Below are positions 4,591 to 21,488 of a stretch of DNA of 25,387 nucleotides, piece by piece (position 1 is the first letter of the stretch; each line of letters begins with the position of its first letter). The position numbers and the translations under genes were made by a program. The stretch comes from a virus. Below the pieces are notes generated by a model. The model was not told the origin of the DNA. It worked only from the letters and a program-made list of their open reading frames with translations, and ran no database searches. The stretch spans positions 1-25,387 of the IMG/VR virus record IMGVR_UViG_3300030060_005159; one strand, written 5' to 3'.

Positions 4591-4796
4591 CCGAGTATGT
4601 TGTAGCTTTACTTATGTTTTGGAACGGAGAGATTAAGGAACACAGAATACAAGACAATATGGCTACATGTTTACGTGCAAAGCGTGTAGCAGAGCGTCAA
4701 TTCAGTGAATCGGTATCCTATAAATGCCTAAAATCTATGGCAGAAACAGAAATTTATTTAGGTGAAAAATCTATAAAAAAACTTATACTTAATTAA
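4587..4796 (+). CDS. Small two-cysteine phage protein
   Basis: A 69-aa protein joined to its neighbours by ATGA (start) and TAATG (end). The N-terminus MTEYVVALLMFWNG is hydrophobic and could be a weak secretion signal; the body has two cysteines (NMATCLRAKR and VSYKCLKSM) about 19 residues apart, which suggests a disulphide-bonded helical hairpin outside the cytoplasm. Similar small proteins occur with the lysis genes of marine phages as I recall. No catalytic motif. Confidence 0.6.
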   Translation: MTEYVVALLMFWNGEIKEHRIQDNMATCLRAKRVAERQFSESVSYKCLKSMAETEIYLGEKSIKKLILN

Positions 4797-5296
4797 TGAA
4801 AATTATAGATAATTTTTTATCTAAAGAAGAATTTAAAGAATTAAAAGATACTATAATATCTGATTCTTTTCCTTTCTATTTTTCAAATTATGTATCTGAC
4901 TCCAGCGAAAAAAAAGACGTTGCTATGTTATATTTTTTACATACTGTTTACACTGGGGGAAACCCCACAAGTGAATGTTTTCCGTTAATTGCTAAAAATT
5001 TACTTTCTAAATTAAATATTTTATCTTTGTTAAGAATAAAAATTAATTGTTACCCCAGAACAGAAAAAATAATATCACACGGTAAGCACAAAGATTTTTC
5101 TAACAATCATAAAGGGGGTATAAACGCAGTATTATTTTCTCTTAATACATGTGATGGATCAACTGTTTTAGAAAATGGAACAGAAGTAAAATCTGTAGCA
5201 AATCGAGCTTTATTTTTTGATTGTATGACTATTCATAATAGTACAAGTTGCACTGATAAAAAGGCAAGATTTAATATAAACATTAATTATTTTTAG
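4796..5296 (+). CDS. 2OG-Fe(II) oxygenase-like protein
   Basis: A 166-aa protein with the iron-binding triad of the 2-oxoglutarate/Fe(II) dioxygenase fold: H98-x-D100 (GKHKD), distal H147 (MTIHNST) and R158 for the 2OG carboxylate, with the jelly-roll strands INAVLFSLNT and RALFFDCM between. Enzymes of this fold hydroxylate proteins, nucleic acids or small molecules using 2OG and O2. The N-terminus (MKIIDNFLSKEEF) is the usual beginning of phage family members. The start overlaps the upstream stop (TAATG) and a sulfotransferase follows after 2 bases, so the two form a pair. It is much more AT-rich than the capsid genes and splits the lysis block, which looks like an inserted cassette. Substrate unknown. 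Confidence 0.75.
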   Translation: MKIIDNFLSKEEFKELKDTIISDSFPFYFSNYVSDSSEKKDVAMLYFLHTVYTGGNPTSECFPLIAKNLLSKLNILSLLRIKINCYPRTEKIISHGKHKDFSNNHKGGINAVLFSLNTCDGSTVLENGTEVKSVANRALFFDCMTIHNSTSCTDKKARFNININYF

Positions 5297-5298
5297 TA

Positions 5299-5883
5299 AT
5301 GTTAATAAACAATAAAGTATATTTTATACACATACCTAGAACTGCAGGTAGATTTTTATTTAATTTATTAGAATTAAATAATCAAACCATTGAAGTTTCT
5401 GATTTTAATATTTTATTTAGAGGAAAAGAATCACCTCATTTAACTTATCCTGAACATTGCTTATATACAAACCATCGTTCTTTAGAAAGATTTTGTATTG
5501 TGAGAGATCCAGTAGATAGATTTATTTCAATGATCAAAGGAAGTTGGTTATTTGATCAAGAAAAAATAGATAAAATGTTTAGTAGCCAAAGCTATTTTGA
5601 TGAAACAGTTAGTAATCTTTGTTTAAATGTTGATGGTAATTGGTTTATACCTCAAATTAATTTTATAGATTATAAGACAAAAATATGGAGGTTTGAAAAT
5701 AATTTAGATAGTAAATTTTTTGATTGGTTGTGGTATAATTTTAATATTAAAATTACCAAATTTAATGATAAACATCATGCTAAAGTTGGAGAATCAAATC
5801 GTAACGATGTTATTTTAAATAGCAAACAAATAGGGTATATTAAAGATTATTATTATAAAGATTATAAAATTTTAAATTATTGA
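5299..5883 (+). CDS. Sulfotransferase family protein
   Basis: A 194-aa protein with the two hallmarks of PAPS-dependent sulfotransferases: an N-terminal 5'-phosphosulfate loop, VYFIHIPRTAGRFLF (residues 7-21), and the 3'-phosphate motif FCIVRDPVDRFISMIKG (65-81). This family moves a sulfo group from PAPS to a hydroxyl or amine on a glycan, protein or small molecule. It follows the oxygenase gene by 2 bases and overlaps the M15 peptidase start (TGATG). One sampled line of the gene is about 17% GC. At 194 aa it is short but both cofactor motifs are present. The target could be a phage or host glycan; this is inference. Confidence 0.75.
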   Translation: MLINNKVYFIHIPRTAGRFLFNLLELNNQTIEVSDFNILFRGKESPHLTYPEHCLYTNHRSLERFCIVRDPVDRFISMIKGSWLFDQEKIDKMFSSQSYFDETVSNLCLNVDGNWFIPQINFIDYKTKIWRFENNLDSKFFDWLWYNFNIKITKFNDKHHAKVGESNRNDVILNSKQIGYIKDYYYKDYKILNY

Positions 5884-6359
5884 TGAAACTTTCTCGAAAC
5901 TTTACACTTTTAGAATTGATTAAATCAGACACAGCTGTCCGTAAAGGAATTAATAATAATCCTAACGCAGGACAAATAGAAAAATTAAAATTATTGTGTG
6001 AAAATATACTACAACCAGTACGTGACCACTTCGGCAGAGTTAAGGTGACCAGCGGATTCCGTAGTCCAGAGTTGTGTGTGGCCATAGGATCTAGTTTGAC
6101 CAGTCAACATTCAAAAGCGGAAGCGATTGATTTTGAATGTGTTGGAGTAGATAACGCTGAGGTTTTTGATTGGATCAAAGCAAACCTCGATTGGGATCAA
6201 ATGATACTTGAGTTCTACACTCCTGGGGAACCCAATTCGGGATGGGTTCATTGTAGTTGGGTTGCAGAAAATCCTCGTAAACAATTATTAAGAGCGTTCA
6301 AAGAAGATGGTAAAACAAAATATAAGCCAATACTAGGAAAAGCAAAAGATTTGCTATAA
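5883..6359 (+). CDS. M15 family zinc endopeptidase (endolysin-like)
   Basis: A 158-aa Peptidase_M15_3-type protein: FTLLELIKSD at the start, VKVTSGFRSPEL at 53-64, the zinc motif SQHSKAEAIDF with H76 and D83, and GWVHCSW with the third ligand H123; E110 is a candidate catalytic residue. The family cleaves peptidoglycan stem or cross-bridge peptides. The ATG at 5883, overlapping the upstream TGA, is preferred over an upstream TTG at 5880. There is no signal peptide, so release would need a holin, for which the single-TM proteins at 3286-4590 are candidates; it could also be virion-associated. In the usual motif a Gly sits where A/E is found here (SKAEA), a minor variation. Confidence 0.85.
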   Translation: MKLSRNFTLLELIKSDTAVRKGINNNPNAGQIEKLKLLCENILQPVRDHFGRVKVTSGFRSPELCVAIGSSLTSQHSKAEAIDFECVGVDNAEVFDWIKANLDWDQMILEFYTPGEPNSGWVHCSWVAENPRKQLLRAFKEDGKTKYKPILGKAKDLL

Positions 6360-6389
6360 AATATAATGTAATAATTATTTGGAGATAAG

Positions 6390-6560: not shown

Positions 6561-6562
6561 AA

Positions 6563-6600
6563 ACTTTAGATCTAAAGTGATACAATCAAAAAAATTGTAT
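6563..6600 (+). promoter_or_regulatory. Two tandem inverted repeats in the gap before the basic-protein run
   Basis: A perfect 16-base palindrome (ACTTTAGATCTAAAGT, 6563-6578) is followed at once by a second inverted repeat (ATACAAT 6580-6586, seven-base A-rich loop, ATTGTAT 6594-6600). They start 2 bases after a stop codon and end 19 bases before the next ATG. They could be a terminator/processing site or an operator; no T tract follows the first. Confidence 0.4.
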
Positions 6601-6619
6601 AACAGAAAAAGGTTTAAAA

Positions 6620-7015
6620 ATGACAAAACTATGTCCTAGAGGCAAGGCTGCAGCGAAGCGAAAATTTCGAGTATATCCGTCCGCATATGCGAACGCCTAC
6701 GCTTCAAAAATTTGTGCAGGTAAAATTAAAGATCCATCTGGTGTAAAGAGAAAAGATTTTAAGGGACCTAAACCAGCAGGAAAAGTTTCAGGTGGTGAAG
6801 CAAAAATTAAAAAAGTTGCAAGTGCTTTACATAAAGCATCTTCACTTCATAAAGCTCAAGCTAAAACTTTAGATTCCATGACAAAAGCAAGTAAAGGTGA
6901 ATTTGCACAAAAACTTCAACCATATGATGGTAGTTATGTAAAAGGCGATTTAGCTGGTCATAAAGTTTCAAATAAAAGTTTAAGTAATTATTATAAGGGT
7001 ATGATCAATGACTAA
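6620..7015 (+). CDS. Basic Cys-containing protein (YPSAYANAYAS domain)
   Basis: A 131-aa highly basic protein. Residues 4-45 contain LCPRGKAAAKRKFRVYPSAYANAYASKICAGK, split here as LCPRGKAAAKRKFRV and YPSAYANAYASKICAG, a small domain I recall from cyanophages and large algal viruses with no known function. The middle is helical and Lys/Ala-rich (VASALHKASSLHKAQAKTL). The C-terminus SLSNYYKGMIND carries the YY-x-x-[LM] motif shared with the following genes. It overlaps the next gene by 8 bases. The ribosome site is weak (AAGG). A genome-associated or virion cargo role is plausible. Confidence 0.65.
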   Translation: MTKLCPRGKAAAKRKFRVYPSAYANAYASKICAGKIKDPSGVKRKDFKGPKPAGKVSGGEAKIKKVASALHKASSLHKAQAKTLDSMTKASKGEFAQKLQPYDGSYVKGDLAGHKVSNKSLSNYYKGMIND

Positions 7016-7193
7016 AAAGAAAAAAGAAAAAATTTTTAAAAATCCTTTTGATGCAAGAAAAGCTGCAGATGATGAAGATAGAAAAAAATTTAGAGAAGAT
7101 AAATCAATAGAAGCAAAAGGTTTGAAAAATGGTGGCATGTGCCGTGGAGCAGGAGCCGCTATCAAGGGGACAAAATTTGAAGGTGTTTTCTAA
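7008..7193 (+). CDS. 61-aa basic protein (RGAGAAIKGTKFEGVF type)
   Basis: A 61-aa protein coupled to the genes on both sides (8-base overlap at the start, TAATG at the end). The N-terminal two thirds are charged (Lys, Asp, Glu), and the end, GGMCRGAGAAIKGTKFEGVF, is a motif I recall as the usual C-terminus of small marine phage proteins. Unlike its neighbours it lacks the YY motif. Function unknown; context suggests a virion or packaging accessory. Confidence 0.6.
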   Translation: MTKKKKEKIFKNPFDARKAADDEDRKKFREDKSIEAKGLKNGGMCRGAGAAIKGTKFEGVF

Positions 7194-7468
7194 TGGGACT
7201 AAAAAAATGGTTCGATCAAAAATGGGTAGATATTGGGAGCAAACGAAAAGATGGTTCATACGCACCCTGTGGTCGTTCAAAATTAGCAGCGGATCGAAAA
7301 CGGAAGTATCCAAAATGCGTCCCTGCTGCAAAAGCAGCAAGGATGACAGACTCTCAAAGGAAGAGTGCCGTTGCGAGGAAAAGAGCTAAACCTCAAGGAG
7401 TAGGTGGTAAACCAACAAATGTGAGTACCTTTACCAAAAAGTATTACGGTGGTATGATTGAAGTATGA
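7193..7468 (+). CDS. Basic Cys-containing protein (APCGR...YPKC domain)
   Basis: A 91-aa, strongly basic protein. Residues 9-60 have the pattern KWVDIGSKRKDGSYAPCGR, then KYPKCVPAAKAARM, followed by a Lys/Arg helix. I recall this compact Cys-Gly-Arg domain in marine phages and giant viruses as a domain of unknown function. The C-terminus, FTKKYYGGMIEV, has the YY-x-x-[LM] motif. Start by TAATG with the gene before, end by ATGA with the gene after. A nested frame at 7129-7389 is judged a shadow. Confidence 0.65.
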   Translation: MGLKKWFDQKWVDIGSKRKDGSYAPCGRSKLAADRKRKYPKCVPAAKAARMTDSQRKSAVARKRAKPQGVGGKPTNVSTFTKKYYGGMIEV

Positions 7469-8172
7469 GTGAAAAATTATTTAAAGCAGGTCAATCTTTA
7501 ACAAGAGCCTATAAAAAATTTGACGATTTCGCACAAAAAGGTTTAATTAAAACTTTAAAAGAAAGATTTAATAAAGGTAAAGCACCTTTAAGTACAAGTA
7601 AAGAATTAACAGTGTTTGATTCAAAGAAAGCACTGCCTTCTTCAAAGTTACCTAGTACTGCAAAAAAAATTGGAAAATTAGGTACACTTGGAAAAGTTGG
7701 AAGAATAGCCAGAGCTGCAACACCTGTTGGATTAGGAATTGAAGCAGGAATTCTTGCTTATAAAGTTGCAACAAGAACTCCTGAACAAAAAGCAAGATCA
7801 AAAGCATTAAAAACAAAATTAAGTAAAACAAGTACAAAAGATTATCATAAAGATTTATTAAAAATGAGTATAGGAGGAGAGACAATGTTAAAGAACCCAA
7901 AAAAAGCAGACCTAGATAAAGATGGCAAATTATCTAGTTATGAGAAAAAAAGAGGAAAAGCCATTGAACAAAACATGAAAGCAAAAAAAGGTAAAATGAT
8001 GTATGCTAATGTTGGTATGGCTGCTAAAAAAGTTAGAGAAAAAGATATGATGAAAGCATCTATGGGTAAATCTGTTAGAGGTTATGGCGCAGCTAGAACT
8101 TCTGGCATGGGTTTACAAGACGAACAATTACCACCAGGAAAATCTTTAGATTATTATAAAGATTTAATGTAA
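7465..8172 (+). CDS. Basic two-part protein with EF-hand-like loop and internal start
   Basis: A 235-aa basic protein that looks like two modules. Module 1 (1-138) has a hydrophobic helix (about 85-100, TPVGLGIEAGILAYK) and ends in STKDYHKDLLKM. Module 2 (141-235) starts at an in-frame ATG (7885) with a perfect AGGAGG (7872-7877) 7 bases upstream; it contains a canonical EF-hand calcium loop at 149-160 (D149, D151, D153, G154, E160) and ends KSLDYYKDLM. Both modules thus end in nearly the same motif, which suggests a fusion of two formerly separate genes, or production of a 95-aa short form from the internal start. The GYGAARTSGMGLQ stretch near the end is typical of marine phage proteins. 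Role unknown. Confidence 0.65.
   Translation: MSEKLFKAGQSLTRAYKKFDDFAQKGLIKTLKERFNKGKAPLSTSKELTVFDSKKALPSSKLPSTAKKIGKLGTLGKVGRIARAATPVGLGIEAGILAYKVATRTPEQKARSKALKTKLSKTSTKDYHKDLLKMSIGGETMLKNPKKADLDKDGKLSSYEKKRGKAIEQNMKAKKGKMMYANVGMAAKKVREKDMMKASMGKSVRGYGAARTSGMGLQDEQLPPGKSLDYYKDLM
7872..7887 (+). promoter_or_regulatory. Consensus internal ribosome binding site and ATG
   Basis: AGGAGG at 7872-7877, 7 bases before an ATG that is in frame with the surrounding gene (codon 141). This is among the strongest ribosome sites in the window, stronger than the one at the gene's own start, so translation of a separate 95-aa C-terminal product is likely. Confidence 0.6.
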
Positions 8173-8178
8173 TGAATT

Positions 8179-11706: not shown

Positions 11707-12405
11707 ATGTCAAGTAGTTTTTCAAGCGATCTAAAACTTGAACTGATGGTAACTGGTGAAAATGCCGGTACCTGGGGTGACAATACAAACAATAATTTAA
11801 ATCTAGTACAACAAGCAATTGCTGGATATCAAGCAATAGATGTAGCCTCTTCAGATGTTGCATTAGTAATGACTGATAAGACTATTTCAAATGCTAGAAA
11901 TGCAACTTTAAAATTGACAGGCACATTAGCAGCAAACAGAACTGTAACTATTCCAAATAGTATAGAAAAAGTTTATAATGTTGTTGATGGCACAGACCAT
12001 GCTGGTTATACATTAACTTTTAAAACAGTTAGTGGAACTGGTGTTTTACTTTGTGAGGGCAATTGTTATGTCCTTTATTCTGATGGAACAAATGTTGAAA
12101 AAGCAAACGAATATAGAAAATGGAGAACTGTAACAGCTAGTGAAACAGTACAAGCTGGTGCTCAACTTTTTGTTGACACAAATGGTGGAGCTGTAACAAT
12201 TACACTACCTGCATCACCTGCTAATGGTGATGAAGTACACTTTATAGATTCGAGATTTACTTTTGATGCCAACGCATTGACTGTAGGACGAAACAGTTCT
12301 AAAATAGCAAACGCAACTTCAGACTTGGTCGTTAATACTGAAGGAGCTGGTTTTGGATTAGTTTATTCTGGTTCAGATGTCGGCTGGACTTACATGGAGA
12401 AATAG
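11707..12405 (+). CDS. Tail fibre-region protein (SSFSSDLKLELMVTGENAG family)
   Basis: A 232-aa protein starting after TTAGGAG. The first 30 residues (FSSDLKLELMVTGENAGTWG, then DNTNNNLNLVQQAIAGY) are a conserved marine phage pattern that I recall as the attachment end of fibre proteins. The rest is a series of beta strands with Thr/Gly turns (NRTVTIPNSIEKVYNV, GYTLTFKTVSG, VLLCEGNCYVLYSDG, AVTITLPASPANGDEV). Followed 3 bases later by a collar-domain fibre gene. Likely part of the adhesion apparatus. Confidence 0.65.
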   Translation: MSSSFSSDLKLELMVTGENAGTWGDNTNNNLNLVQQAIAGYQAIDVASSDVALVMTDKTISNARNATLKLTGTLAANRTVTIPNSIEKVYNVVDGTDHAGYTLTFKTVSGTGVLLCEGNCYVLYSDGTNVEKANEYRKWRTVTASETVQAGAQLFVDTNGGAVTITLPASPANGDEVHFIDSRFTFDANALTVGRNSSKIANATSDLVVNTEGAGFGLVYSGSDVGWTYMEK

Positions 12406-12408: not shown

Positions 12409-12996
12409 ATGTCAAATTACGAAGCAACAAGATACGATTTTACTGGAGCAAATCTTACAGGTATCGAGGGTACTGCTACGGGAACTATTTTACCGTGGTC
12501 TTCAGCATCAGTCCCAACTGGATTTTTAGAATGTGATGGATCAGCAGTTTCGAGATCAACTTATTCTGCATTATTCGCAGTCGTTTCAACAACTTATGGA
12601 GTTGGAGATGGGGCTTCTACTTTTAACTTACCAAATTTAGCTGATAATGTTCCAGTAGGAAAATCTAACACTAAAGCTTTAGCATCAACTGGTGGAGCTA
12701 ATACTGTAACTTCAACAGGGAATGTTGCAGGTTCAACAGCTAATGCAACTTTAACAACAGCACAACTTGCATCTCATGCTCATGATGGATTAGTACCTGG
12801 TGGTTCTGGTCATTTTACTAATTATACAACTAACGTACAAACTAGAGGTCCATCATTTACTACACCGGGTGGTAATAAAACTTTAACCACTGGTTCTGGT
12901 TCAGGCCACTCCCATAACATGAGTGCAAACTTTGCCGGAGATGCAACTTCAGTTATACAACCTTATTTAACACTAATTTATATTATTAAGACGTAG
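12409..12996 (+). CDS. Tail collar domain fibre protein
   Basis: A 195-aa protein with a phage tail collar domain at about 26-90: GTILPWSSASVPTGFLECDG, then YSALFAVVSTTYGVGDG and TFNLPNLADNVPVGK. This domain is typical of fibre/collar tips of tailed phages. After it come His/Gly/Ser-rich segments (LASHAHDGLVPGG, SGHSHN) that in fibres often form metal-binding coils, and a final IQPYLTLIYIIKT, the usual end of this family. The GGAG ribosome site sits inside the end of the previous gene. Its likely role is host receptor contact. Confidence 0.8.
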   Translation: MSNYEATRYDFTGANLTGIEGTATGTILPWSSASVPTGFLECDGSAVSRSTYSALFAVVSTTYGVGDGASTFNLPNLADNVPVGKSNTKALASTGGANTVTSTGNVAGSTANATLTTAQLASHAHDGLVPGGSGHFTNYTTNVQTRGPSFTTPGGNKTLTTGSGSGHSHNMSANFAGDATSVIQPYLTLIYIIKT

Positions 12997-13004: not shown

Positions 13005-13361
13005 ATGGCAACTAATGCAAATTGGACAGTAATATTTGATGATAAAAAAATTATAAAACAGACAGGAGAATATAGTCCTCGTGCTTTTGATATTGACGAT
13101 GATGCTTTTTGGAATGATTCTAAATGGTCTAATATTTGGGCTATTCAATATGTGAGTGATAATTTAGACCATATGGATACTGTAGAACATAGAGACACTA
13201 CTCCACATAAATCTTGGAACCAAGCAGAATTAGGTGATTTTAGTTCTCAATTTATATCTAGATGGGATGCAGAGCTTTTGAAAGAGTTACAATTGAGTTG
13301 GGATGAAGACTCTAGAGATGAATCTGAAAAAGGCGCAAGACCTACTTCTTATTCTTCATAA
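13005..13361 (+). CDS. Small acidic phage protein after fibre genes
   Basis: A 118-aa protein after AGGAG. It is acidic and Trp-rich (NWTVIFDDKKIIKQ, FWNDSKWSNIWAIQYV), ending in a charged helical region. I recall similar proteins following fibre genes in marine phages but with no known function; a fibre-assembly chaperone would fit the position. Its stop lies 13 bases inside the convergent oxygenase gene on the other strand, so the two coding ends overlap and no terminator separates them. Confidence 0.55.
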   Translation: MATNANWTVIFDDKKIIKQTGEYSPRAFDIDDDAFWNDSKWSNIWAIQYVSDNLDHMDTVEHRDTTPHKSWNQAELGDFSSQFISRWDAELLKELQLSWDEDSRDESEKGARPTSYSS

Positions 13362-13855
13362 TCCTTTATAAATAAAGTAGCCGTATACCTTTTAAGATTA
13401 GGTATATTACTAGCATGTGGAGAATGAAATTTATCTGAAGGAAAAATTATCCCTCTATTTTCTCTAAATCCTACATGAATATCTAATTGTTGTTCTGTAT
13501 AAAATACAGTTCCATTTGTGACCGCAGTGGGACCAGCTATCATTATTAAAATATTTATTTTTGCTCCTTCTTTTATGTCAATGTGTGGTTTAAAAGTATC
13601 TAAATTTCTTTGATCAATACCACAATTATTTTCATCTATTTTTTTTATTTTTATTTTAAATTTTAATTCAGCTTGTTCTATAAATAATTTTAATAAATTG
13701 GGTTCATTTTTTAATTTCCACTGATTACCATAAAAACTTTTTTTATTTTTTTCTTTATTGTTATATGCAGGTGTATAAAATGCTTTGGTTAGAGCAAAAT
13801 TTTTTACTGCTTCAAAATCTTTTTTGTTAAAAAAGTCATCTATAATTCTAATCAT
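13349..13855 (-). CDS. 2OG-Fe(II) oxygenase-like protein
   Basis: A 168-aa protein and the last of four minus-strand genes. Ligands: H91-x-D93 (KPHIDIKEG), distal H144 (or H147, KFHSPHASN), and R156 (NLKRYTATLF) for 2OG. The start MIRIIDDFFNKKDF is the usual opening of phage family members and resembles the gene at 4796. It begins directly after the stop of the upstream gene (TAAATG). The very AT-rich sequence and position between a fibre-region gene and the nozzle gene suggest an inserted cassette. Substrate unknown. Confidence 0.7.
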   Translation of the reverse strand: MIRIIDDFFNKKDFEAVKNFALTKAFYTPAYNNKEKNKKSFYGNQWKLKNEPNLLKLFIEQAELKFKIKIKKIDENNCGIDQRNLDTFKPHIDIKEGAKINILIMIAGPTAVTNGTVFYTEQQLDIHVGFRENRGIIFPSDKFHSPHASNIPNLKRYTATLFIKDYEE

Positions 13856-14344
13856 TTAATTTTCTTTCGTAGTGTTAAAAGATATTATTAACCTCTGTTC
13901 ATCTTTTTTTAAAGATCGTACTTCATGAGGAGTCATTGAGGGAAACATTAATAATGTATTTTTTTTAAATTTATGCTGATATACATTATTAAACAAACTA
14001 TCGTAAAAAACAGTTGGACTAGGTTCTAGCCCATCCAAATAAATTATTCCTGAATAAACTGACCCATAATGACAGTGAACAATATGTTTATTGTTACTAT
14101 TATAAAATTGAGCCCAATTATTTTTTAATATTAAATTATGTTTTTCTAAAATGTTAATTATTTGTTTTTTTAAATTTTTTAAAATAGGAAAATTCAAAAT
14201 GTTGAAAGAGTCAAAAGTGCTTTTTTTATCTTTAGTTTTTTCATTTTTAATTAAAATTAAAACTTGATTAATTTCCTCTGTTGTTATTTTAACTTTATAT
14301 TCATAAAACAAATGCTCATGTAAAAAAGGATCAAATTTATTCAT
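13856..14344 (-). CDS. 2OG-Fe(II) oxygenase-like protein with HxH motif
   Basis: A 162-aa protein (168 if the upstream ATG at 14362 is used; 14344 is preferred because its ATG overlaps the upstream stop as TAATG). The fold pattern is that of the TIGR02466-like group: WAQFYNSNNKHIVHCHYGS with H90-C-H92 in place of the usual H-x-D, then SGIIYLDGL, NTLLMFPSMTPHEV with H140, and R151-LIISFN. The second ligand position is His rather than Asp, as I recall for this subgroup, so the iron site may differ from the other five. It is the third gene of the minus-strand run; one sampled line of it is about 20% GC. Confidence 0.6.
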   Translation of the reverse strand: MNKFDPFLHEHLFYEYKVKITTEEINQVLILIKNEKTKDKKSTFDSFNILNFPILKNLKKQIINILEKHNLILKNNWAQFYNSNNKHIVHCHYGSVYSGIIYLDGLEPSPTVFYDSLFNNVYQHKFKKNTLLMFPSMTPHEVRSLKKDEQRLIISFNTTKEN

Positions 14345-14937
14345 TATCTTAACATCATCCAAGATGTCAAAATATATTTTTCACCTGACAAAGGTGGATT
14401 GCCTCTATGTAGATATGGAAAGCCAGATGGCCATATAACTATTCTACCTGTTTTTGGTTTGACTCTTTTTGAAAAATGTAAAAATTCTGTTTCTCCACCA
14501 TCTTCAACATCATTTAAATATACAGAAAATACAAAAGCACGGGGCTCATTATTATAACCTGCACCATGTTCTATATGCCAAACATGATATCCTTCAGTTG
14601 GTAAAGTTTTTTGTATTTTTAAATCGGTCAATCGAAAAGGAACTCCGTAAGCCTCATTTGCGCCAATGTTTTCTGCATAATGTTTAAAAGCCATTTCATA
14701 ATTAAATATTAAACTTTTTAATTCGTCCCACCATACTTTAATATTAAAAGGAGCTGCGAAAAATTGTTGATCTTGTTTTTTAAGTATTGACGCTTTTTCA
14801 AAACCTATTCTATTAACAGTTTTATTAAATTTGTCTTGGTCTTCAAACAGTTGAATAGCTTTTTTACATTCCTCTTCTGTAATATAATTATCGTATACAC
14901 CAATAAAATTGTCTATGTTAACTGTTTTTTCCTTCAT
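14344..14937 (-). CDS. Prolyl 4-hydroxylase-like 2OG-Fe(II) oxygenase
   Basis: A 197-aa protein closest in pattern to P4H-type enzymes: YHVWHIEHGAGY with H121-x-E123 as metal ligands, the strand AFVFSVYLNDVEDGGETEF, distal H177 in PYLHRGNPP, and K187 where P4Hs use Lys to bind 2OG. The Glu in place of Asp is a recognised variation in phage homologues, as I recall, but deserves testing. P4H-type enzymes act on peptidyl proline or other protein residues, which would fit modification of a virion or host protein. Starts 30 bases after the previous gene and its stop overlaps the next start. Confidence 0.75.
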   Translation of the reverse strand: MKEKTVNIDNFIGVYDNYITEEECKKAIQLFEDQDKFNKTVNRIGFEKASILKKQDQQFFAAPFNIKVWWDELKSLIFNYEMAFKHYAENIGANEAYGVPFRLTDLKIQKTLPTEGYHVWHIEHGAGYNNEPRAFVFSVYLNDVEDGGETEFLHFSKRVKPKTGRIVIWPSGFPYLHRGNPPLSGEKYILTSWMMLR

Positions 14938-14967
14938 TAATATATTTTTCTACAATAATTATTTGTT

Positions 14968-15483
14968 CTATTCAACCTTTCTATCATAAGCGTGTTCTCT
15001 ATTAGGACCGTTTTGATCTACATAATGAAAAAAAACTTGTGCCATTCCTTCACCTTTATAAACTCCAGGACGACCATGTTTTTGATCACACCCTGCATAT
15101 AAAACTGCATCTCCCTCTTTAATTTCAAAAGATTCATCTTCTACAGTAATAGGCCAGTTATCATATTTTTTTATACAAGCAGTTACACTTATTTCACAAG
15201 CAGGTCTATCAGAGTGTTTAGATAGGGTTGCTCCAAAAACATAATATCTCCAATAAGCATAGGTTGGAAATAATTTTAGATTAGATTGTTTTTCTACTAT
15301 AGGTAATTTTATATCTAATAAAGAAGTCATGAGTGGATCTTGATACCAAGCGGGAGAAAAAGATTGAATGTCTAATTCATAGTCTTTGTTTTTATCAAGC
15401 TTATTAAAACAATATTTTTGAAGAATTTCTAATTCTTGTTGTTTAAAAAAATTTTTAATTAATTTATATTTTACTTTAACCAT
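14968..15483 (-). CDS. 2OG-Fe(II) oxygenase-like protein
   Basis: A 171-aa protein, second in the minus-strand run, overlapping the first gene by 13 bases. Motifs: H90-x-D92 (LSKHSDRPACEISV), H136 (CDQKHGRPG) and a following FFHYVDQNG strand. The usual Arg about ten residues after the distal His is not obvious, K143 being the nearest candidate, so 2OG binding may differ. Strands around ITVEDESFEIKEGDAVLYAG fit the jelly-roll. It is a different subgroup from the other three, judged by the WRYYVFGATL and GMAQVFFHY segments. Confidence 0.65.
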   Translation of the reverse strand: MVKVKYKLIKNFFKQQELEILQKYCFNKLDKNKDYELDIQSFSPAWYQDPLMTSLLDIKLPIVEKQSNLKLFPTYAYWRYYVFGATLSKHSDRPACEISVTACIKKYDNWPITVEDESFEIKEGDAVLYAGCDQKHGRPGVYKGEGMAQVFFHYVDQNGPNREHAYDRKVE

Positions 15484-16016
15484 GCAACAATACTATACCT
15501 TGTCCCTTTCGTAATAGGTTGAATACCATGTGGATAAATAAAATTACTAGGAAAAAAAACTATAGAACCTTTATTTAATTTTAATCTTTTAATTTCTTTT
15601 TCTTTTTGATCTGTAAAAATTAAATCTCCACCTTCGTATTCACTGTTTAAATTTAAAATAACACTTAAATGTCTAGATAGAGCTGAATGATGGTCTGTAT
15701 GAATTTCATATTTACCACCTGGGTTATATTTTAACAAATCTATTTGACCAATTACTGAACTCGTTATTCTTGGAAATTTACTTTTATAAAAAATATAAAG
15801 TCTTTCTATTTCCGTTTTTATAAAGTTCCAATAAAATAAATTAGTTGGAGTTTCTAGATTTAAACGATAGCCTTTTACATTTCTCACATTTTTATCTAGA
15901 CCTCCAAATGTTGTTAAATTTTTTGATGCTTTTTTATTTATTAAGGGTATTATTTTTTTTATGAATTCGTCAGAAATAACATTTTTAATTTCAACTACTG
16001 CCTCTAAATGATCCAT
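15471..16016 (-). CDS. Canonical 2OG-Fe(II) oxygenase (P4H-like)
   Basis: A 181-aa protein and the first gene of the minus-strand run. All four key residues are in place: H106-x-D108 (YEIHTDHHS), H163 (IYPHGIQP) and R173 (GTRYSIVAWL), with HLSVILNLNSEYEGGDLIF and KGSIVFFPSNF between, the hallmark of the P4H/2OG-Fe(II) group. An AGGAT ribosome site precedes the ATG. Probably transcribed leftwards from the intergenic region at 16017-16097 through all four genes to 13349. The substrate could be a protein residue, but this cannot be read from sequence. Confidence 0.8.
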   Translation of the reverse strand: MDHLEAVVEIKNVISDEFIKKIIPLINKKASKNLTTFGGLDKNVRNVKGYRLNLETPTNLFYWNFIKTEIERLYIFYKSKFPRITSSVIGQIDLLKYNPGGKYEIHTDHHSALSRHLSVILNLNSEYEGGDLIFTDQKEKEIKRLKLNKGSIVFFPSNFIYPHGIQPITKGTRYSIVAWLK

Positions 16017-16097
16017 ATAATTTATCCTTTTGAAGCTCCTTTTATACTACATTTACAAAGTATTTAAATAACATTCTTTCTAGGGTATAATACCCAT
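16017..16097. promoter_or_regulatory. Divergent intergenic region with small hairpin
   Basis: The 81 bases between the start of the minus-strand oxygenase run and the plus-strand nozzle gene. It contains GGGTATAATACCC (16083-16095), a 5-bp stem with a TAA loop that includes a TATAAT hexamer, 2 bases before the nozzle ATG; no good -35 lies at standard spacing. On the minus strand a TATAAA lies before an AAGGAG. It is the natural place for promoters of both directions, but neither is certain. Confidence 0.35.
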
Positions 16098-18248
16098 ATG
16101 CCTTTAACAAATGTACAAATTAGACCTGGTTTTAATAAACAAGTTACACCTGCTGGAGCTGAAGGTCAGTGGACAGATGGTGATTTTGTTAGATTTAGAT
16201 ATGGGCTCCCAGAAAAAATTGGTGGTTGGGAACAAATAACAAACTCTACATTTTGTGGAGCTGCTCGAGATCAATTACAATGGGCTGATTTAGATGGTAG
16301 AAGATATGCCGCTATTGGCACTAATAAAGTTTTGTTAATATATTTTGAAGATTCTTTTTTCGACATAACTCCATTAGATACAGCTATAACTGGCGCAACA
16401 TTTACTACTGTAAATACAAGTCCAACTGTTACTGTTAACAAAATAGCTCATGGGTTTTCACCAGGAGATTTGTTTACTTTTACTTCAGTCACACCACCAA
16501 GTGGTGCTGGATATTCCTCTTCCGATTTTGAAACAAATACTTTTCAAGTTGTTACTACACCGTCTTTAGATACTTTTACTATTACTATGGCTTCTAATGC
16601 GGGAACAAGTGTTTCAGCTAGTGGTGCAGCTACAATAAACCCTTACGTTAAAGTAGGACCATTAAGTCAGACATCAGGATTTGGTTGGGGCACAGCGCAA
16701 TGGGGTGGAGGTTCTGGAATTATAACAACTTTGAACGGTGCACTTTTAGATGACACCGCTGGAACTGGAGGTTCAGGTACCTCAATTACATTAACGTCTG
16801 TTGTAGGTCTACCAACTTCTGGAACTATAAAAGTAGGTGCAGAATTTATTTCTTATACTGGAATTTCTTCTAATAATTTAACAGGGATAACAAGAGCTGT
16901 CGCTGGTACAAGATCTGCCCATAGTGATGGTGCTTCAGTAGAAGCTTTTACAGCTTGGGGAAATGCTAGTCTATCTGGAGGGGTTACATTAGATTCGGCA
17001 TCTTGGTCTTTAGATCATTTTGGATCTAAATTAATTGCAACAATAAAAAATGGAAAAACTTTTGAATGGGATACTGTAAGTACTACTCCTGGAGCTTTGA
17101 CTACTAGAGCCACTGTTGTAAGTGGAGCCCCAACAACTTCTGTTATGTCTATTGTTTCAGAAAGAGATAGACATCTAGTAATGCTTGGCACTGAAACAAC
17201 AATTGGAACAACTACTTCACAAGATAAAATGTTTATTAGATTTTCTGATCAAGAAGATATTTCTGATTACGCTCCTACTTCAGTAAATACAGCAGGAACT
17301 TTTAGAATAGATTCAGGAACTAAAATTGTAGGAGCCGCTAAAGGTAAAGATTATATATTGATCCTTACTGACACTTCAGCATATGTAATGCAATTCGTAG
17401 GTCCACCATTTACTTTTTCTATAAGACAAGTGGGAAGCAATTGTGGAGCTATAGGTCAACATTCAATAAAATATGTAAACGGTGCAGTTTGGTGGATGGG
17501 TCAATCAGGAGGATTTTTTGTTTACGATGGTACTGTTAAATCTGTTCCATGTTTAGTAGAAGATTTTGTATTTACAGATAAAGGAGATAACCTAGGTATA
17601 AGTTATGGTAATGGTGAACAAGTTTATGCAGGTCTTAATAGTCTTTATGAAGAGGTAAGTTGGTTCTATCCAAAAAGTGGTTCTGCATTAATAGATAGAG
17701 TTGTAACTTATAATTATGCTGAACAAACTTGGACAACTGGATCATTATCTAGAACAACATGGAATGATGCAACATTATATGACAAACCATATGCAACTGA
17801 ATTTAATTCTACAAACATACCATCATTTCCAACAATACAAGGCGTTACAAATATTAATGGTGCTTCTATTTATTACGCACACGAAGTTGGTAATAATCAA
17901 GTTGATTCTTTAGGTGCTAAAACTGCCATACCTGCTTTTATTCAATCAGGAGATTTTGATTTATCTCAAGGTGGAGATGGTCAATTTTTTATGAGCATGA
18001 GAAGATTTATTCCTGACTTTAAATTGATTACTGGAGATGCACAAGTGACTATAAATTTAAGAAGATTTCCTGCTGACACTGCATCATCCTCGCCTCTCGG
18101 ACCTTTTACAATAAATAGTACAACAGAAAAAGTAGACACAAGAGCCAGATCAAGGTTCGCTAGTATAAAAGTTGCAAATACCTCCACTGATCAGAATTGG
18201 AGATATGGAACTTTTAGGGCAGACGTACAACCAGATGGTATGAGATAA
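16098..18248 (+). CDS. Tail nozzle-like protein (P22 gp10/T7 gp12-like)
   Basis: A 716-aa, beta-rich protein. The opening RPGFNKQVTPAGAEGQW then DGDFVRFRYGLPEKIGGWEQ is the usual beginning of podovirus tail stabilisation/nozzle proteins. Residues 110-180 look like an Ig-like domain (TVTVNKIAHGFSPGDLF), 194-205 carry a Trp-Gly motif (GFGWGTAQWGGG), 210-284 are the beta module also found in the gene at 8179, and the rest has beta-propeller-like units such as RHLVMLGTETT, DYILILTDTSAYVMQF and GAVWWMGQSGGFFVYDG. It would close the tail below the adaptor. The strong ribosome site is missing; the ATG sits beside the hairpin at 16083. A small gene follows by TAATG. Confidence 0.7.
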   Translation: MPLTNVQIRPGFNKQVTPAGAEGQWTDGDFVRFRYGLPEKIGGWEQITNSTFCGAARDQLQWADLDGRRYAAIGTNKVLLIYFEDSFFDITPLDTAITGATFTTVNTSPTVTVNKIAHGFSPGDLFTFTSVTPPSGAGYSSSDFETNTFQVVTTPSLDTFTITMASNAGTSVSASGAATINPYVKVGPLSQTSGFGWGTAQWGGGSGIITTLNGALLDDTAGTGGSGTSITLTSVVGLPTSGTIKVGAEFISYTGISSNNLTGITRAVAGTRSAHSDGASVEAFTAWGNASLSGGVTLDSASWSLDHFGSKLIATIKNGKTFEWDTVSTTPGALTTRATVVSGAPTTSVMSIVSERDRHLVMLGTETTIGTTTSQDKMFIRFSDQEDISDYAPTSVNTAGTFRIDSGTKIVGAAKGKDYILILTDTSAYVMQFVGPPFTFSIRQVGSNCGAIGQHSIKYVNGAVWWMGQSGGFFVYDGTVKSVPCLVEDFVFTDKGDNLGISYGNGEQVYAGLNSLYEEVSWFYPKSGSALIDRVVTYNYAEQTWTTGSLSRTTWNDATLYDKPYATEFNSTNIPSFPTIQGVTNINGASIYYAHEVGNNQVDSLGAKTAIPAFIQSGDFDLSQGGDGQFFMSMRRFIPDFKLITGDAQVTINLRRFPADTASSSPLGPFTINSTTEKVDTRARSRFASIKVANTSTDQNWRYGTFRADVQPDGMR
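16725..16949 (+). repeat. Beta module copy 2 (shared with adaptor-like protein)
   Basis: Codons 210-284 of the nozzle-like gene carry TLNGALLDDTAG, SGTIKVGAEFISYTG, NLTGITRAVAG and AHSDGASVEAF. They align with codons 95-160 of the gene at 8179. Both copies sit as insertions inside tail proteins, suggesting a portable surface domain. Confidence 0.6.
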
Positions 18249-18412: not shown

Positions 18413-18759
18413 CCATTAGATATAAAAACCAAGGTTTTAAACAAGCTAGTACAGGTAAGACTACAGTGCTTACATGTCCAAATGATGCAACATTAATTAT
18501 TAAAAGTGTTTATTGTGCAAACAATGATGCTTCTTCAGCTATTGTAGTAAACATGAATTTAGTAGACTCTTCTGATTCAAGCACAGAGTATGAATTTTTT
18601 AGAGATGATTTAGCTGCTAAATCACAAGTTAATTCTACCCCTCAAGGTTTAAATTTAGAAGCAGGTGATGCAATAACAGTACAAGCAGCTACAGGAAGTA
18701 GTAAAATACAAGGTGTAATAAGTTATGCACTTATAGACCGATCACAGGAAAATGGATAA
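18409..18759 (+). CDS. Small beta-rich virion protein
   Basis: A 116-aa protein with alternating beta stretches (TTVLTCPNDATLIIKSVYC, AIVVNMNLVD, TEYEFFRDDL, AGDAITVQAATG, KIQGVISYALI). It overlaps the following oxygenase gene by 8 bases and the previous gene by ATGA. The size and strand pattern resemble the protein at 1736. Likely a small head or tail decoration subunit; not assigned to a family. Confidence 0.6.
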   Translation: MTIRYKNQGFKQASTGKTTVLTCPNDATLIIKSVYCANNDASSAIVVNMNLVDSSDSSTEYEFFRDDLAAKSQVNSTPQGLNLEAGDAITVQAATGSSKIQGVISYALIDRSQENG

Positions 18760-19366
18760 TAAAAAAATAAATTATAAATTTTTTTATTGGGGTCCTTTTT
18801 TATATAAAACAACTCTAAATGAGGAAGAGATACAAAAAATAAAAAATTTATGTAATAAAAAAGGTGAAGATGTTAGAGCCAAACTAGCTGGGCTGATGAA
18901 TCAGGAATATAAACTCAATCGTAAAAAAATTTTTAAAATAATTGCTCCTTACTTACAAAGTTATTTACAAGCATATGTAGAACATTACGGAAAATTTGTT
19001 TCACCAAAGATAGAACTGACATCTGCTTGGGTTAACTATATGACTAAATATGAATCTAATCCTCTTCACCACCATGAAGAAGATTTATCTTTTGTTTTAT
19101 TTCTTAATGTGCCAGAAAAATTAGAAGAAGAATATAAAACCAGAAAAAGTACAAGCAAACCAGGCGTTATTAATTTTATGAATAAATTACAAGAGGATGA
19201 TATGTATCTTAACAGCCATAGTTTTTTTCCTAGAGTTGGTGATTTTTATATTTTCCCTGCTAACTTACCACACTACGTTAATGGTTTTAGTTGTGATGGA
19301 GAAAGAATATCTGTATCTGGTAATGTTAAATTTCATACACCTAAAAAGAAAAAATTAAATGGCTAG
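18752..19366 (+). CDS. 2OG-Fe(II) oxygenase-like protein with HHHEE cluster
   Basis: A 204-aa protein of the phage TIGR02466-like/2OG-Fe(II) type. The metal-binding stretch is ESNPLHHHEEDLSFVLFLNV, giving H106-x-H108 or H107-x-E109, followed by GDFYIFPANLPHYVNGF with distal H174 and ERISVSGNVKF with R185 for 2OG. Residues 122-150 are a charged insertion. The start overlaps the previous gene by 8 bases and the end overlaps the next start. It is the only 2OG-like gene outside the two other clusters and sits just before the glycosyltransferases, so it may act in the same pathway. Whether the HHHEE cluster binds iron in the usual way is unclear. Confidence 0.65.
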   Translation: MDNKKINYKFFYWGPFLYKTTLNEEEIQKIKNLCNKKGEDVRAKLAGLMNQEYKLNRKKIFKIIAPYLQSYLQAYVEHYGKFVSPKIELTSAWVNYMTKYESNPLHHHEEDLSFVLFLNVPEKLEEEYKTRKSTSKPGVINFMNKLQEDDMYLNSHSFFPRVGDFYIFPANLPHYVNGFSCDGERISVSGNVKFHTPKKKKLNG

Positions 19367-19487: not shown

Positions 19488-19489
19488 TT

Positions 19490-19687
19490 ATGAACGATAT
19501 ACCAAAAATACCAGTTGAAGCAAAAGAAATAATTAAAAATAAAAGAACAGGAAAAATATACGCTAGTAAAGATGATTTTGATTCTGATGTTGCTGATCCC
19601 AATACTGATACTACTGCAGATGACTTTAGACAAGATTTGGAAGTTAAAGTAACAAGAGTAACGTTAGGTGCAAAGACTAAAAAATAA
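19490..19687 (+). CDS. 65-aa acidic small phage protein
   Basis: A 65-aa protein with a GGGAGA ribosome site; charged, with no membrane segment. The stretch KIYASKDDFDSDVADPNTDT, then DDFRQDLEVKV, is a pattern I recall as conserved in marine phages. It follows the 42-aa basic protein by 2 bases and precedes the GT-B gene by 3. The acidic nature next to a very basic peptide could mean pairing, but nothing proves it. Confidence 0.6.
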   Translation: MNDIPKIPVEAKEIIKNKRTGKIYASKDDFDSDVADPNTDTTADDFRQDLEVKVTRVTLGAKTKK

Positions 19688-19690
19688 TTT

Positions 19691-20626
19691 ATGAAACCAA
19701 GAGGTGCTACTGAACTTCAAATGGAAATGCTAGAAAAGCATGTCTCAAAAGATATTTTAGATCAAACACAAATTTGTACATCAATACCTGGTAAAGTACC
19801 AATAGACCCAAACAAATTAAATATTTTGTGGCAAAAAAATTCTTATGACCAACCCAACTTACAAGAATTTTTTAAAAATCCAAAGAGACATAAAGAGTAT
19901 GATTGGTATGTTTTTAACAGTCATTGGAACTATGAAAAATTTAGATATTTTTTTGGCATACCTACTGATAGGTGTGTTGTTATTAAAAATGGTATGGACA
20001 ACTTTCCAATAAGAAAAATTTACAAAAAAGATGAACCTATAAAGTTAATACATCATTGTACTCCATGGAGAGGAATTAATGTTTTACTTCGTGCTATGCA
20101 GGAAATAAATGATCCAAAAATTTCTTTAGATGTTTATTCATCTACTCAAGTTTATGGTTCTGAATTTAGTAAAGTACATGATGATGAATTTAAACCATTA
20201 TATGAACAAGCTAAAGAATTACCAAATGTAAATTATATTGGATATAAACCAAATGAATATATAAAAGAAATGATGCCTAATTATGACATGTTTGTTTATC
20301 CTTGTATATTTGAAGAAACTTCTTGTGTTTCTGCATTAGAGGCTTTGTCATCTGGAGTACATGTAATAACAAATAATTTTGGTGCCTTATATGAAACTTG
20401 TGCAGAGTGGCCAGTATATGTTAATTATTCTACAAACTATGAACAAATGGCAATTGATACAGCATCTGCAATTAAAACTGCAGCTAACTATTTACATGAA
20501 GATTCAGTTCAAAATCATTTAAATGAACAACAAAAATATTATAAAAAATTTTATAACTGGAAAAATAAAGGAGAAGAATGGACACAATTTTTGAAAGGAG
20601 CTTTGGATGAATGGAAAAAAAGATGA
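19691..20626 (+). CDS. GT4-like (GT-B fold) glycosyltransferase
   Basis: A 311-aa protein with the C-terminal nucleotide-sugar domain of the GT4 group: IKLIHHCTPWRGINVLLRAM (118-137), NVNYIGYKPNEY, and FEETSCVSALEALSSGVHVI with E209 and E217 as the E-x7-E pair (207-226). The N-terminal half contains VFNSHWNYEKF and VVIKNGMDNF, the typical acceptor-side pieces. GT4 enzymes transfer a sugar from a nucleotide donor. At 311 aa it is on the short side for a full GT-B, but both halves are present. The end overlaps the next GT gene by 20 bases. Targets may be virion proteins or host glycans. Confidence 0.75.
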   Translation: MKPRGATELQMEMLEKHVSKDILDQTQICTSIPGKVPIDPNKLNILWQKNSYDQPNLQEFFKNPKRHKEYDWYVFNSHWNYEKFRYFFGIPTDRCVVIKNGMDNFPIRKIYKKDEPIKLIHHCTPWRGINVLLRAMQEINDPKISLDVYSSTQVYGSEFSKVHDDEFKPLYEQAKELPNVNYIGYKPNEYIKEMMPNYDMFVYPCIFEETSCVSALEALSSGVHVITNNFGALYETCAEWPVYVNYSTNYEQMAIDTASAIKTAANYLHEDSVQNHLNEQQKYYKKFYNWKNKGEEWTQFLKGALDEWKKR

Positions 20627-21488
20627 GTATATAAATGAAGACACTTATCAAACTTTGAAAGAGTTTAGAATAGACCCACCTCCTCATCAAAAATCAATAG
20701 AGCCAATGTGGAAAAAAAAAGAAAGTAAACCAGAATCTCCATATAAAATTTTTGTAGCAAGTCCTGTACACAGTGACGTATCAATGCATTATGCACAAGC
20801 TCTTTTGGAGTTTCAAAAATTAGCTTTGGATAAAGGAGTTTTAACAAGATTTAATTTGATGAAATCTTCTCTAGTAACACAAGGTAGAAATTTATGTGTA
20901 TCAGGTTTTTTAGAAAGTGATTACACCCATTTATTATTTGTTGATTCTGATATTTGGTTTCATTCACCCTCTATATTTAAAATGATTGAAAAAGACAAAG
21001 ATATTATTTCAATACCATATCCATTAAAAACCATGATGTGGGATAAATTATTTAATAAAATTCAACAAGGTAAAGTAGAAAAACCTGAAGACTTAAAAAA
21101 ATATTTAAATACCTATCCGATGAAAGTTGCAGATCCAAAAAGTATTATATTAGATAATGGTGTTATGGAAGTAACGCACAGTCCAACTGGTTGTATGTTA
21201 ATAAAAAGAGAGGTATTTTTTAAAATGATTGAAGCCTATCCTGAAAAAAGTATTGTACAAAAAACTGTGATAAATGGTAAATATGTTGATAGACCTCATA
21301 TGTGGAATTTTTTTGACTGCTTACACGATCCAATAACTAAAACATATTTAGGTGAGGATTTTTCTTTTTGTAAACTTTGGAAAGATATAGGGGGTAAATG
21401 TTATGCCTATGTTGACGGTCCTATTGCTCATGTAGGAGAACACTCTTATGAGGGTCGATTTAGTGATGAGTTGATAACTAAAGAGTAA
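20607..21488 (+). CDS. GT-A fold glycosyltransferase
   Basis: A 293-aa protein with a KIFVASPVHSDVSMHYAQAL start (47-66), a QGRN segment, the donor-binding DxD motif D113-S-D115 in HLLFVDSDIWFH, and the phage GT pattern GEDFSFCKLWKDIGGKCYAYVD followed by HVGEHSYEGRF (249-285) with conserved H275 and H279. Residues 1-45 are a charged leader. The start has AAGGAG six bases upstream and lies 20 bases inside the previous gene, so the pair is co-translated. It could be the second step after the GT4 enzyme, or act independently on a hydroxylated protein. Confidence 0.75.
   Translation: MNGKKDEYINEDTYQTLKEFRIDPPPHQKSIEPMWKKKESKPESPYKIFVASPVHSDVSMHYAQALLEFQKLALDKGVLTRFNLMKSSLVTQGRNLCVSGFLESDYTHLLFVDSDIWFHSPSIFKMIEKDKDIISIPYPLKTMMWDKLFNKIQQGKVEKPEDLKKYLNTYPMKVADPKSIILDNGVMEVTHSPTGCMLIKREVFFKMIEAYPEKSIVQKTVINGKYVDRPHMWNFFDCLHDPITKTYLGEDFSFCKLWKDIGGKCYAYVDGPIAHVGEHSYEGRFSDELITKE

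What the first reader, a model, noticed from the sequence alone, without database searches (positions are those of the whole stretch)
4796..21488. Six divergent 2OG-Fe(II) oxygenase-like genes, one sulfotransferase and two glycosyltransferases among virion genes
Seen: six proteins with readable HxD/HxE/HxH...H...R/K motifs (4796, 13349, 13856, 14344, 14968, 15471 to 16016, plus 18752), counted as 4796, four in the minus-strand run at 13349-16016, and 18752; one PAPS-type sulfotransferase (5299); a GT-B and a GT-A enzyme (19691, 20607). They occupy separate insertion points in an otherwise ordinary podovirus late region. Known: 2OG enzymes make hydroxyls, and glycosyltransferases and sulfotransferases use hydroxyls as acceptors, as in collagen hydroxylysine glycosylation. 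Inference: a phage-coded pathway that hydroxylates, then glycosylates or sulfates a virion protein (fibre or decoration) or a host surface molecule. Having six different subfamilies suggests several substrates or arms-race diversification.
Basis: partly seen in the sequence, partly recalled or inferred. Interest (0 to 1): 0.8.

Follow-up and report, generated by a model that had tools for sequence, protein, structure and literature searches.

The report
Tail-linked hydroxylase island in pelagiphages
This ocean virus of SAR11-type bacteria carries seven iron-dependent hydroxylase genes beside its tail genes, plus two sugar-transfer genes and one sulfate-transfer gene; in related viruses the hydroxylases are inherited together with the tail tip, which suggests, but does not prove, that they chemically decorate the tail.

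Summary
The genes are real, and there are seven 2OG-Fe(II)-type genes, not six: 4796, five in the minus-strand run 13349-16016, and 18752. The sulfotransferase and GT-B pass Pfam cut-offs; the GT-A rests on a predicted fold and an invariant DxD. The window is a fragment of an HTVC023P-type pelagiphage. Multiple 2OG genes in this group were published before (PMC9599517).

New here: (1) The E gene (14968), called 'ferrochelatase' in PHROG, RefSeq and two papers, has a 2OG-oxygenase fold and no ferrochelatase domain. (2) Between tail tip and the 16098 gene, all 105 related islands read hold 2OG genes whose content shuffles. One tail-tip type always carries D (63/63), mostly on the minus strand; another always carries E (37/37). 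The E tree follows tail type (2 changes, the minimum); the adjacent 16098 backbone does not (8). (3) Sulfotransferase, tryptophan halogenase, carbamoyltransferase and methyltransferase genes share these sites; the GT pair is core (54/54). (4) Some bacterial E homologs sit in peptide-maturation clusters or beside TPR-sulfotransferases.

Most likely a tail-cognate protein-tailoring module. Own-tail substrate is inferred, not shown; host-surface modification is the main rival.

The parts
4796..5296 (+). A: 2OG-Fe(II) oxygenase-like (HxD..H..R), phrog_274 family mislabelled 'DNA endonuclease V'
   Evidence: PF13640 E=4e-4; H98, D100, H147, R158 in 85-89% of relatives; profile alignment to F
5299..5883 (+). 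ST: sulfotransferase (PF03567 / phrog_3347)
   Evidence: motifs HIPRTAG and RDPVDRFIS; relatives at the same site or inside the 2OG island
11707..12405 (+). tail fibre-like protein
   Evidence: phrog_31104 and tail families
12409..12996 (+). tail collar/fibre protein (COL), tail-tip module of this phage
   Evidence: phrog_9116, phrog_19618; used as anchor
13005..13361 (+). small conserved partner of COL, upstream border of the island
   Evidence: next to COL in COL-type relatives; no Pfam match
13349..13855 (-). B: 2OG oxygenase-like
   Evidence: H91, D93, H144, R156 invariant in 17 relatives; profile match to F
13856..14362 (-). C: PF13759-type 2OG-like protein, HxH..H; TTG start as listed, in-frame ATG 18 nt downstream
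   Evidence: PF13759 39.9 bits; conservation; start
14344..14937 (-). D: P4H-like 2OG oxygenase with HxE..H..K; present in every COL-type island
   Evidence: PF13640 44.8 bits; 63/63 COL islands; PDB relatives P4H/PHD2
14968..15483 (-). E: 2OG-oxygenase fold, mislabelled 'ferrochelatase' (phrog_2954)
   Evidence: AF2 pLDDT 96; top-50 PDB matches all 2OG oxygenases; no PF00762; H90 and D92 invariant, H136 at least 90%
15471..16016 (-). F: PKHD/P4H-type 2OG oxygenase, overlaps E by 13 nt
   Evidence: PF13640 67.1 bits; PDB relatives PiuC, P4H, PHD2, lysyl hydroxylases; overlap
16098..18248 (+). virion structural protein (phrog_3287), downstream border of the island and backbone marker
18752..19366 (+). 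G: PF13759-type 2OG-like protein (HxH..H), accessory
   Evidence: PF13759 51.5 bits; family profile matches PDB 3bvc and 2rg4; site variable
19490..19687 (+). 65-aa conserved charged protein just upstream of the GT pair
   Evidence: 56 copies in fetched loci
19691..20626 (+). GT-B glycosyltransferase (PF00534), core
   Evidence: PF00534 48.8 bits; followed by GTA in 54/54 loci
20607..21488 (+). GT-A-fold glycosyltransferase (phrog_1574), core
   Evidence: D113-S114-D115 invariant in 28; AF2 pLDDT 80; PDB matches STIV A197, COLGALT1, LH3

Best explanation
The window holds a tail-cognate protein-tailoring module of an HTVC023P-type pelagiphage. Shown: seven 2OG-oxygenase-class proteins, a sulfotransferase and a conserved GT-B/GT-A pair in the late region; a hypervariable 2OG island fixed between tail tip and the 16098 gene; an obligate 2OG member for each tail-tip type; exchange of tail tip plus its 2OG genes as one unit between backbones. 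Inferred: during virion assembly D (alone, or D/F with E in other tail types) hydroxylates side chains of tail-tip proteins; the two glycosyltransferases and, in this phage, the sulfotransferase add groups to that or another late protein; accessory enzymes (further 2OGs; in relatives halogenase, carbamoyltransferase, methyltransferase) vary the decoration. The likely benefit is a stable or chemically varied receptor-binding surface against a changing host.
For: Enzyme identity. Tail linkage: 63/63 COL islands hold D and 37/37 U1 islands hold E; 192 of 208 (COL) vs 2 of 86 (U1) 2OG genes on the minus strand; the 16098 tree needs 8 changes of tail type (6 of the COL label, all forced by supported branches), the E tree needs 2, the minimum, and COL and U9 E genes each form one clade at support 100. 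E is the nearest gene to 16098 in many U1 islands, so breakpoints fall between E and 16098 but not between E and the tail tip. The pairing recurs in other phages: HTVC008M (U9-like gene next to F-C-C-D-E-C, opposite strand, beside baseplate genes), HTVC033P (U9, U49, F, G, E), S-MbCM6 (tail fibre, fibre-like proteins, F, E). Protein as substrate: E homologs in Xanthomonadaceae RiPP clusters with precursor peptide, radical SAM, C39-ABC exporter and other 2OG genes; E-D-F after TPR-sulfotransferase genes, and a 2OG-TPR-GT41 fusion next to E. Interchangeable cargo: ST at the lysin site or between D and E; Trp halogenase, carbamoyltransferase, O-methyltransferase.
Against: No modified virion protein is known. 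Co-inheritance of neighbours could be physical linkage, and opposite orientation by itself hinders mixing of COL and U1 sets. A host receptor matched to the tail would give the same linkage. E occurs away from tail genes in P-SSM7 and ACG-2014f. No collagen-like repeats, and fibre proteins poor in Lys and Pro. GT-A similarity to COLGALT1/LH3 has low TM-scores and no sequence support. The 3-His site of C and G and the missing Arg/Lys in E leave their chemistry open. Only a few bacterial loci show the telling contexts (9 of 72 neighbours are 2OG genes).
Confidence: 0.42

Rival explanations
1. The enzymes change a host surface molecule (LPS, glycan or outer-membrane protein) late in infection, to block superinfection or free progeny from a receptor; the 2OG set is matched to the receptor that the tail recognises.
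For: Linkage to tail type fits equally well. Carbamoyltransferase, O-methyltransferase, epimerase and GT genes in relatives resemble polysaccharide decoration; PMC7824862 reads a cyanophage cluster of halogenase, carbamoyltransferase and 2OG genes as capsule decoration or a secondary metabolite.
Against: Known relatives of D/F act on protein residues; some E homologs sit in peptide-maturation clusters; genes lie inside the virion gene block.
Confidence: 0.25
2. Neutral or weakly selected cargo: the gap next to tail genes is a recombination hot spot, and 2OG genes travel with the tail without acting on it.
For: Content shuffles strongly (43 ordered contents in 63 COL islands); other sites also receive 2OG genes; adjacency alone gives co-transfer.
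Against: No empty island in 105; one obligate member per tail type; conserved active sites; cargo limited mostly to tailoring enzymes; same pairing in unrelated myoviruses.
Confidence: 0.15
3. Auxiliary metabolism: the enzymes act on small molecules (secondary metabolite) or draw down 2-oxoglutarate to steer host nitrogen signalling.
For: Proposed for cyanophages in PMC3037559 (2OG/NtcA) and PMC7824862 (secondary metabolite).
Against: Location in the late structural region, linkage to tail type, many diverged enzymes with separate active sites; not a set needed to consume one metabolite.
Confidence: 0.1
4. DNA or nucleotide modification or repair (AlkB- or TET/JBP-like), as PHROG labels 'DNA endonuclease' suggest.
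For: Labels phrog_274 and phrog_2297; weak AlkB-family matches of F; other members of the phage group carry DNA hypermodification genes (PMC9599517).
Against: No TET/JBP match in the window proteins; AlkB matches far below cut-offs; closest structures are protein hydroxylases; position with tail genes.
Confidence: 0.05
5. Published reading: 2OG oxygenases partnered with a phage ferrochelatase in iron/heme metabolism.
For: Annotation of E homologs as ferrochelatase in RefSeq, PHROG, PMC9599517 and PMC11561400.
Against: E has a 2OG-oxygenase fold and no ferrochelatase domain.
Confidence: 0.02

Closest known systems
2OG-Fe(II) 'auxiliary metabolic genes' of HTVC023P-type pelagiphages (PMC9599517)
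   Same: Same phage group; eight non-orthologous 2OG families, often near each other and next to 'ferrochelatase'; three GTs reported
   Different: That paper treats E as ferrochelatase; in the section read it gives no tail linkage, orientation rule or shared sites with sulfotransferase, halogenase and carbamoyltransferase
Fe(II)-oxygenase genes in metaviromic islands (PMC3909814)
   Same: Oxygenase genes among the commonest genes of variable marine phage islands, filed under host recognition
   Different: In the table read: no family resolution, partner genes or cognate relation to tail type
Collagen-type lysyl/prolyl hydroxylation and glycosylation (P4H, LH3, COLGALT1; viral vCPH and mimivirus lysyl hydroxylase-GT)
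   Same: D/F profile relatives and GT-A fold neighbours; one hydroxylase plus two GTs in the smallest sets
   Different: No Gly-X-Y acceptor; no LH3-like fusion; GT-A match weak; extra 2OG genes and sulfotransferase
Cyanophage cluster with carbamoyltransferase, halogenase and 2OG genes (PMC7824862)
   Same: Very similar enzyme kit
   Different: Described there as a capsule or secondary-metabolite system of large cyanophages, not a tail-linked island
Radical SAM / C39-exporter RiPP clusters of Xanthomonadaceae
   Same: E-family enzyme with other 2OG genes and a short precursor peptide
   Different: No radical SAM, exporter or precursor peptide seen in the phage island; the presumed substrate is a structural protein

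Membership tests
2OG-Fe(II) oxygenase superfamily | His-X-Asp/Glu ... His iron triad (A, B, D, E, F) | tested here: met
   A, B, D (HxE), E, F: conserved in relatives
2OG-Fe(II) oxygenase superfamily | carboxylate in the iron triad, for C (13856) and G (18752) | tested here: not met
   HxH..H conserved: C H98 88%, G H108 97%; so C and G are filed as PF13759-family proteins, not as proven canonical 2OG enzymes
2OG-Fe(II) oxygenase superfamily | double-stranded beta-helix fold | tested here: met
   E by AF2 and Foldseek; G by homology to PDB 3bvc/2rg4; D and F by homology to P4H/PHD2; A and B by profile alignment only
2OG-Fe(II) oxygenase superfamily | Arg/Lys for 2OG about 10 residues after the distal His | tested here: inconclusive
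   Present in A, B, D (Lys) and F; in C and G of the window but not conserved at 80%; absent at that position in E, where other conserved basic residues (R79, R93, R138) might serve
2OG-Fe(II) oxygenase superfamily | 2OG-dependent turnover | not testable with these tools
   needs an enzyme assay
Ferrochelatase (HemH, PF00762) | ferrochelatase domain and fold | tested here: not met
   No PF00762 match in eight E-family proteins; fold is 2OG oxygenase
DNA endonuclease V (phrog_274 label) | endonuclease V domain | tested here: not met
   A and B match no endonuclease family in Pfam and keep HxD..H..R
Sulfotransferase (PF03567) | score above curated cut-off; 5'- and 3'-PAPS motifs | tested here: met
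   24.3 vs 22 bits over residues 5-77; HIPRTAG and RDPVDRFIS
GT-B glycosyltransferase (PF00534) | score above curated cut-off | tested here: met
   48.8 vs 26.4 bits
GT-A glycosyltransferase | nucleotide-sugar-binding GT-A fold with DxD | tested here: met
   model pLDDT 80; Foldseek E 1e-8 to 1e-6 to GT-A enzymes; D113-S114-D115 invariant
GT25 / COLGALT | sequence membership | tested here: inconclusive
   no PDB match by profile; structural TM 0.36-0.43
Collagen-like hydroxylation-glycosylation pathway | Gly-X-Y acceptor | tested here: not met
   no (GXY)6 in window proteins; one in a relative's fibre (L088)

The most novel reading that the evidence does not exclude
Marine phages carry an exchangeable post-translational modification system for their own tail tips: each tail-tip type has a cognate P4H-class hydroxylase (D, or D/F with E), a core pair of glycosyltransferases extends the new hydroxyl, and a changing set of further oxygenases, sulfotransferases, halogenases and carbamoyltransferases gives each strain a different chemical coat on the receptor-binding surface.
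Probability: 0.22. Interest if true: 0.88.

Novelty: new variant of a known kind. Interest (0 to 1): 0.62.

Why it matters
2OG oxygenase genes are among the commonest non-core genes of marine phages, and their role has been open since at least 2010 (PMC3037559). The tail-type rule gives a concrete, testable substrate hypothesis in culturable phages of SAR11, among the most abundant bacteria. The correction of 'ferrochelatase' concerns a family found in 156 phage records here (many so annotated) and the wording of two published conclusions.

Tried and rejected
Ferrochelatase and endonuclease V labels: rejected by fold, Pfam and motifs. TET/JBP or AlkB: no adequate match in the window proteins. 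Collagen-like acceptor: none in the window. Searches of GT-A, E, B and ST against PDB sequences: no meaningful hits. PADLOC: only a generic CRISPR-associated 2OG model, not a defence system. A first profile script timed out. Co-occurrence of 2OG with GTs as a test: not informative, since the GT pair is nearly invariant. Promoter and terminator scan of the island: no more than shuffled.
Full report
What the window is. The window is a 25,387-base virus record. Megablast finds Pelagibacter phages HTVC023P, HTVC027P and 023Pt_psg01, and the gene order matches them. It is a fragment (major capsid to internal virion genes) of an HTVC023P-type pelagiphage.

Checking the genes. Seven proteins, not six, belong to 2OG-oxygenase families: A 4796, B 13349, C 13856, D 14344, E 14968, F 15471, G 18752. 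D and F pass the PF13640 cut-off and C and G pass PF13759. A and B are sub-threshold in Pfam, but keep HxD..H..R in relatives (some A relatives have lost parts of it) and align to F by profile with the motif in register. C and G have a conserved HxH..H instead of HxD..H; solved relatives are the uncharacterised 3bvc and 2rg4. D here is HxE..H..K. Genes in the minus run are packed (gaps 0, -19, 30, -13), as in an operon.

The 'ferrochelatase'. E matches phrog_2954 'ferrochelatase' at 3e-42, and 156 phage records have E homologs, many annotated ferrochelatase. The AF2 model (48 sequences, pLDDT 96) matches only 2OG oxygenases in the top 50 of the PDB: PiuC, P4H, PHD2, Chlorella virus prolyl hydroxylase. 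No E-family protein tested matches PF00762. H90 and D92 are invariant and H136 is kept in at least 90% of the 48 sequences. In ACG-2014f an E domain is fused to a PF13640 domain. So the reported partnership of 2OG oxygenase and ferrochelatase (PMC9599517; PMC11561400) is most likely a pair of 2OG-type enzymes. E lacks the usual 2OG-binding Arg/Lys position; its co-substrate use needs an assay.

The island. I fetched relatives by the 16098 protein and by the tail collar protein 12409, built profiles and mapped genes. Between the tail-tip gene and the 16098 homolog, 105 islands could be read. COL type (63): D in all; 192 of 208 2OG genes on the minus strand; 43 distinct ordered contents; 1 to 7 2OG genes. 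U1 type (37): E in all, with D or F; 84 of 86 on the plus strand. U9 type (5): F, G and E in all. These sets were sampled by similarity and include near-copies, so the counts are not independent. The tree of the 16098 protein needs 8 changes of tail type, and the COL label 6, all forced by supported branches. The E tree of the same loci needs 2, the minimum; COL and U9 E genes are each one clade with support 100. A larger E tree with truncated contigs still keeps COL to 2 changes and places HTVC008M and HTVC033P in a supported set with the U9 genes. D of COL islands is almost all HxE (63 of 67) and forms COL-only supported sets. Hence tail tip and 2OG set move together, while the adjacent backbone gene does not. 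Opposite orientation is a partial alternative explanation for the COL/U1 separation, but not for U1/U9, both on the plus strand. The trees are FastTree trees with some long branches.

Other sites. Accessory 2OG genes sit between 18409 and 19490 homologs (22 of 53 occupied by 2OG), between 19490 and GT-B (10 of 48), between GT-B and GT-A (5 of 52), and at the lysin site. The window's A+ST pair occupies the lysin site, which is empty in 6 of 12 loci and holds ST+A in L219. Sulfotransferase relatives also lie between D and E in L215. Tryptophan halogenase (PF04820, E=1e-88), carbamoyltransferase, RMNT_CmcI methyltransferase and epimerase genes occur at such places in relatives. The GT-B/GT-A pair is invariant (54 of 54). 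In 42 loci read from fibre to GT-A all have at least one 2OG gene, the smallest set being D alone (5) or D/F plus E (3).

Substrate clues. D and F profiles find prolyl and lysyl hydroxylases in the PDB. GT-A's model finds STIV A197, then COLGALT1 and LH3, with low TM-scores, so this is suggestive only. In bacteria, E homologs lie in a conserved Xanthomonadaceae cluster with a short leader-GG-core peptide (core ..WVKVGP..), radical SAM, C39-ABC exporter and further 2OG genes; in Thiogranum E-D-F follow TPR-sulfotransferases, and in an acidobacterium a 2OG-TPR-GT41 fusion is near E. A tally of 72 neighbours shows such contexts are a minority. These point to peptide or protein side chains. The window has no collagen-like repeat.

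Other phages. HTVC008M (myovirus) has F-C-C-D-E-C on the strand opposite to the neighbouring baseplate genes, next to a U9-like gene; HTVC033P has U9, U49, F, G, E; S-MbCM6 has tail fibre, fibre-like proteins, F, E. Exceptions: P-SSM7 and ACG-2014f carry E in the replication region.

Verdict. Enzyme classes: near certain for D and F, strong for E, good for A and B, open chemistry for C and G. Tail linkage: strong. Protein substrate: moderate. Own tail as substrate and the hydroxyl-to-sugar order: inferred. Multiple 2OG genes in these phages are known; the E correction, the tail-type rule and the mixed cargo were not found in the papers read here (only searched passages of them were read).

Noticed in passing
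window 16063-16097: TTTAAA-N17-TATAAT directly before the ATG of the 16098 gene, inside GGGTATAATACCC; TATAAT lies within 60 nt upstream in 32 of 36 U1-type relatives, suggesting a dedicated, nearly leaderless promoter at the island's downstream border.
   Followed up: partly
window 2064-2384, 6620-7015, 7193-7468, 7465-8172: Four Lys-rich proteins (15-19% Lys) among virion genes; role unknown, conceivable targets of lysyl modification.
   Followed up: no
window 2475-3182: PHROG phrog_3704 labels this 235-aa protein 'ferredoxin' at 1e-77; the label looks doubtful.
   Followed up: no
L132, L166, L204, L207, L210: Tryptophan halogenase genes on the minus strand inside the COL-type 2OG island, often with a small sulfotransferase-like protein (193 aa) and a methyltransferase-like protein (165 aa).
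   Followed up: partly
U0 family, e.g. in L010, L012, L028, L056: About 246-aa protein in 31 of 37 U1-type islands between tail tip and D; family not identified.
   Followed up: no
L133:3224-4099 and L134:5144-6019: DUF6817 domain fused to a PF13640 2OG domain in the island.
   Followed up: no
L113, L121, L123, L125: Conserved Xanthomonadaceae RiPP cluster with up to three 2OG enzymes, radical SAM, C39 exporter and a W-V-K-V type core peptide.
   Followed up: partly
U55 family, e.g. L009:3035-3271, L049:5713-5955: Conserved 72-99 aa protein directly after E in many U1-type islands (28 copies); overlaps or abuts E; unidentified.
   Followed up: no
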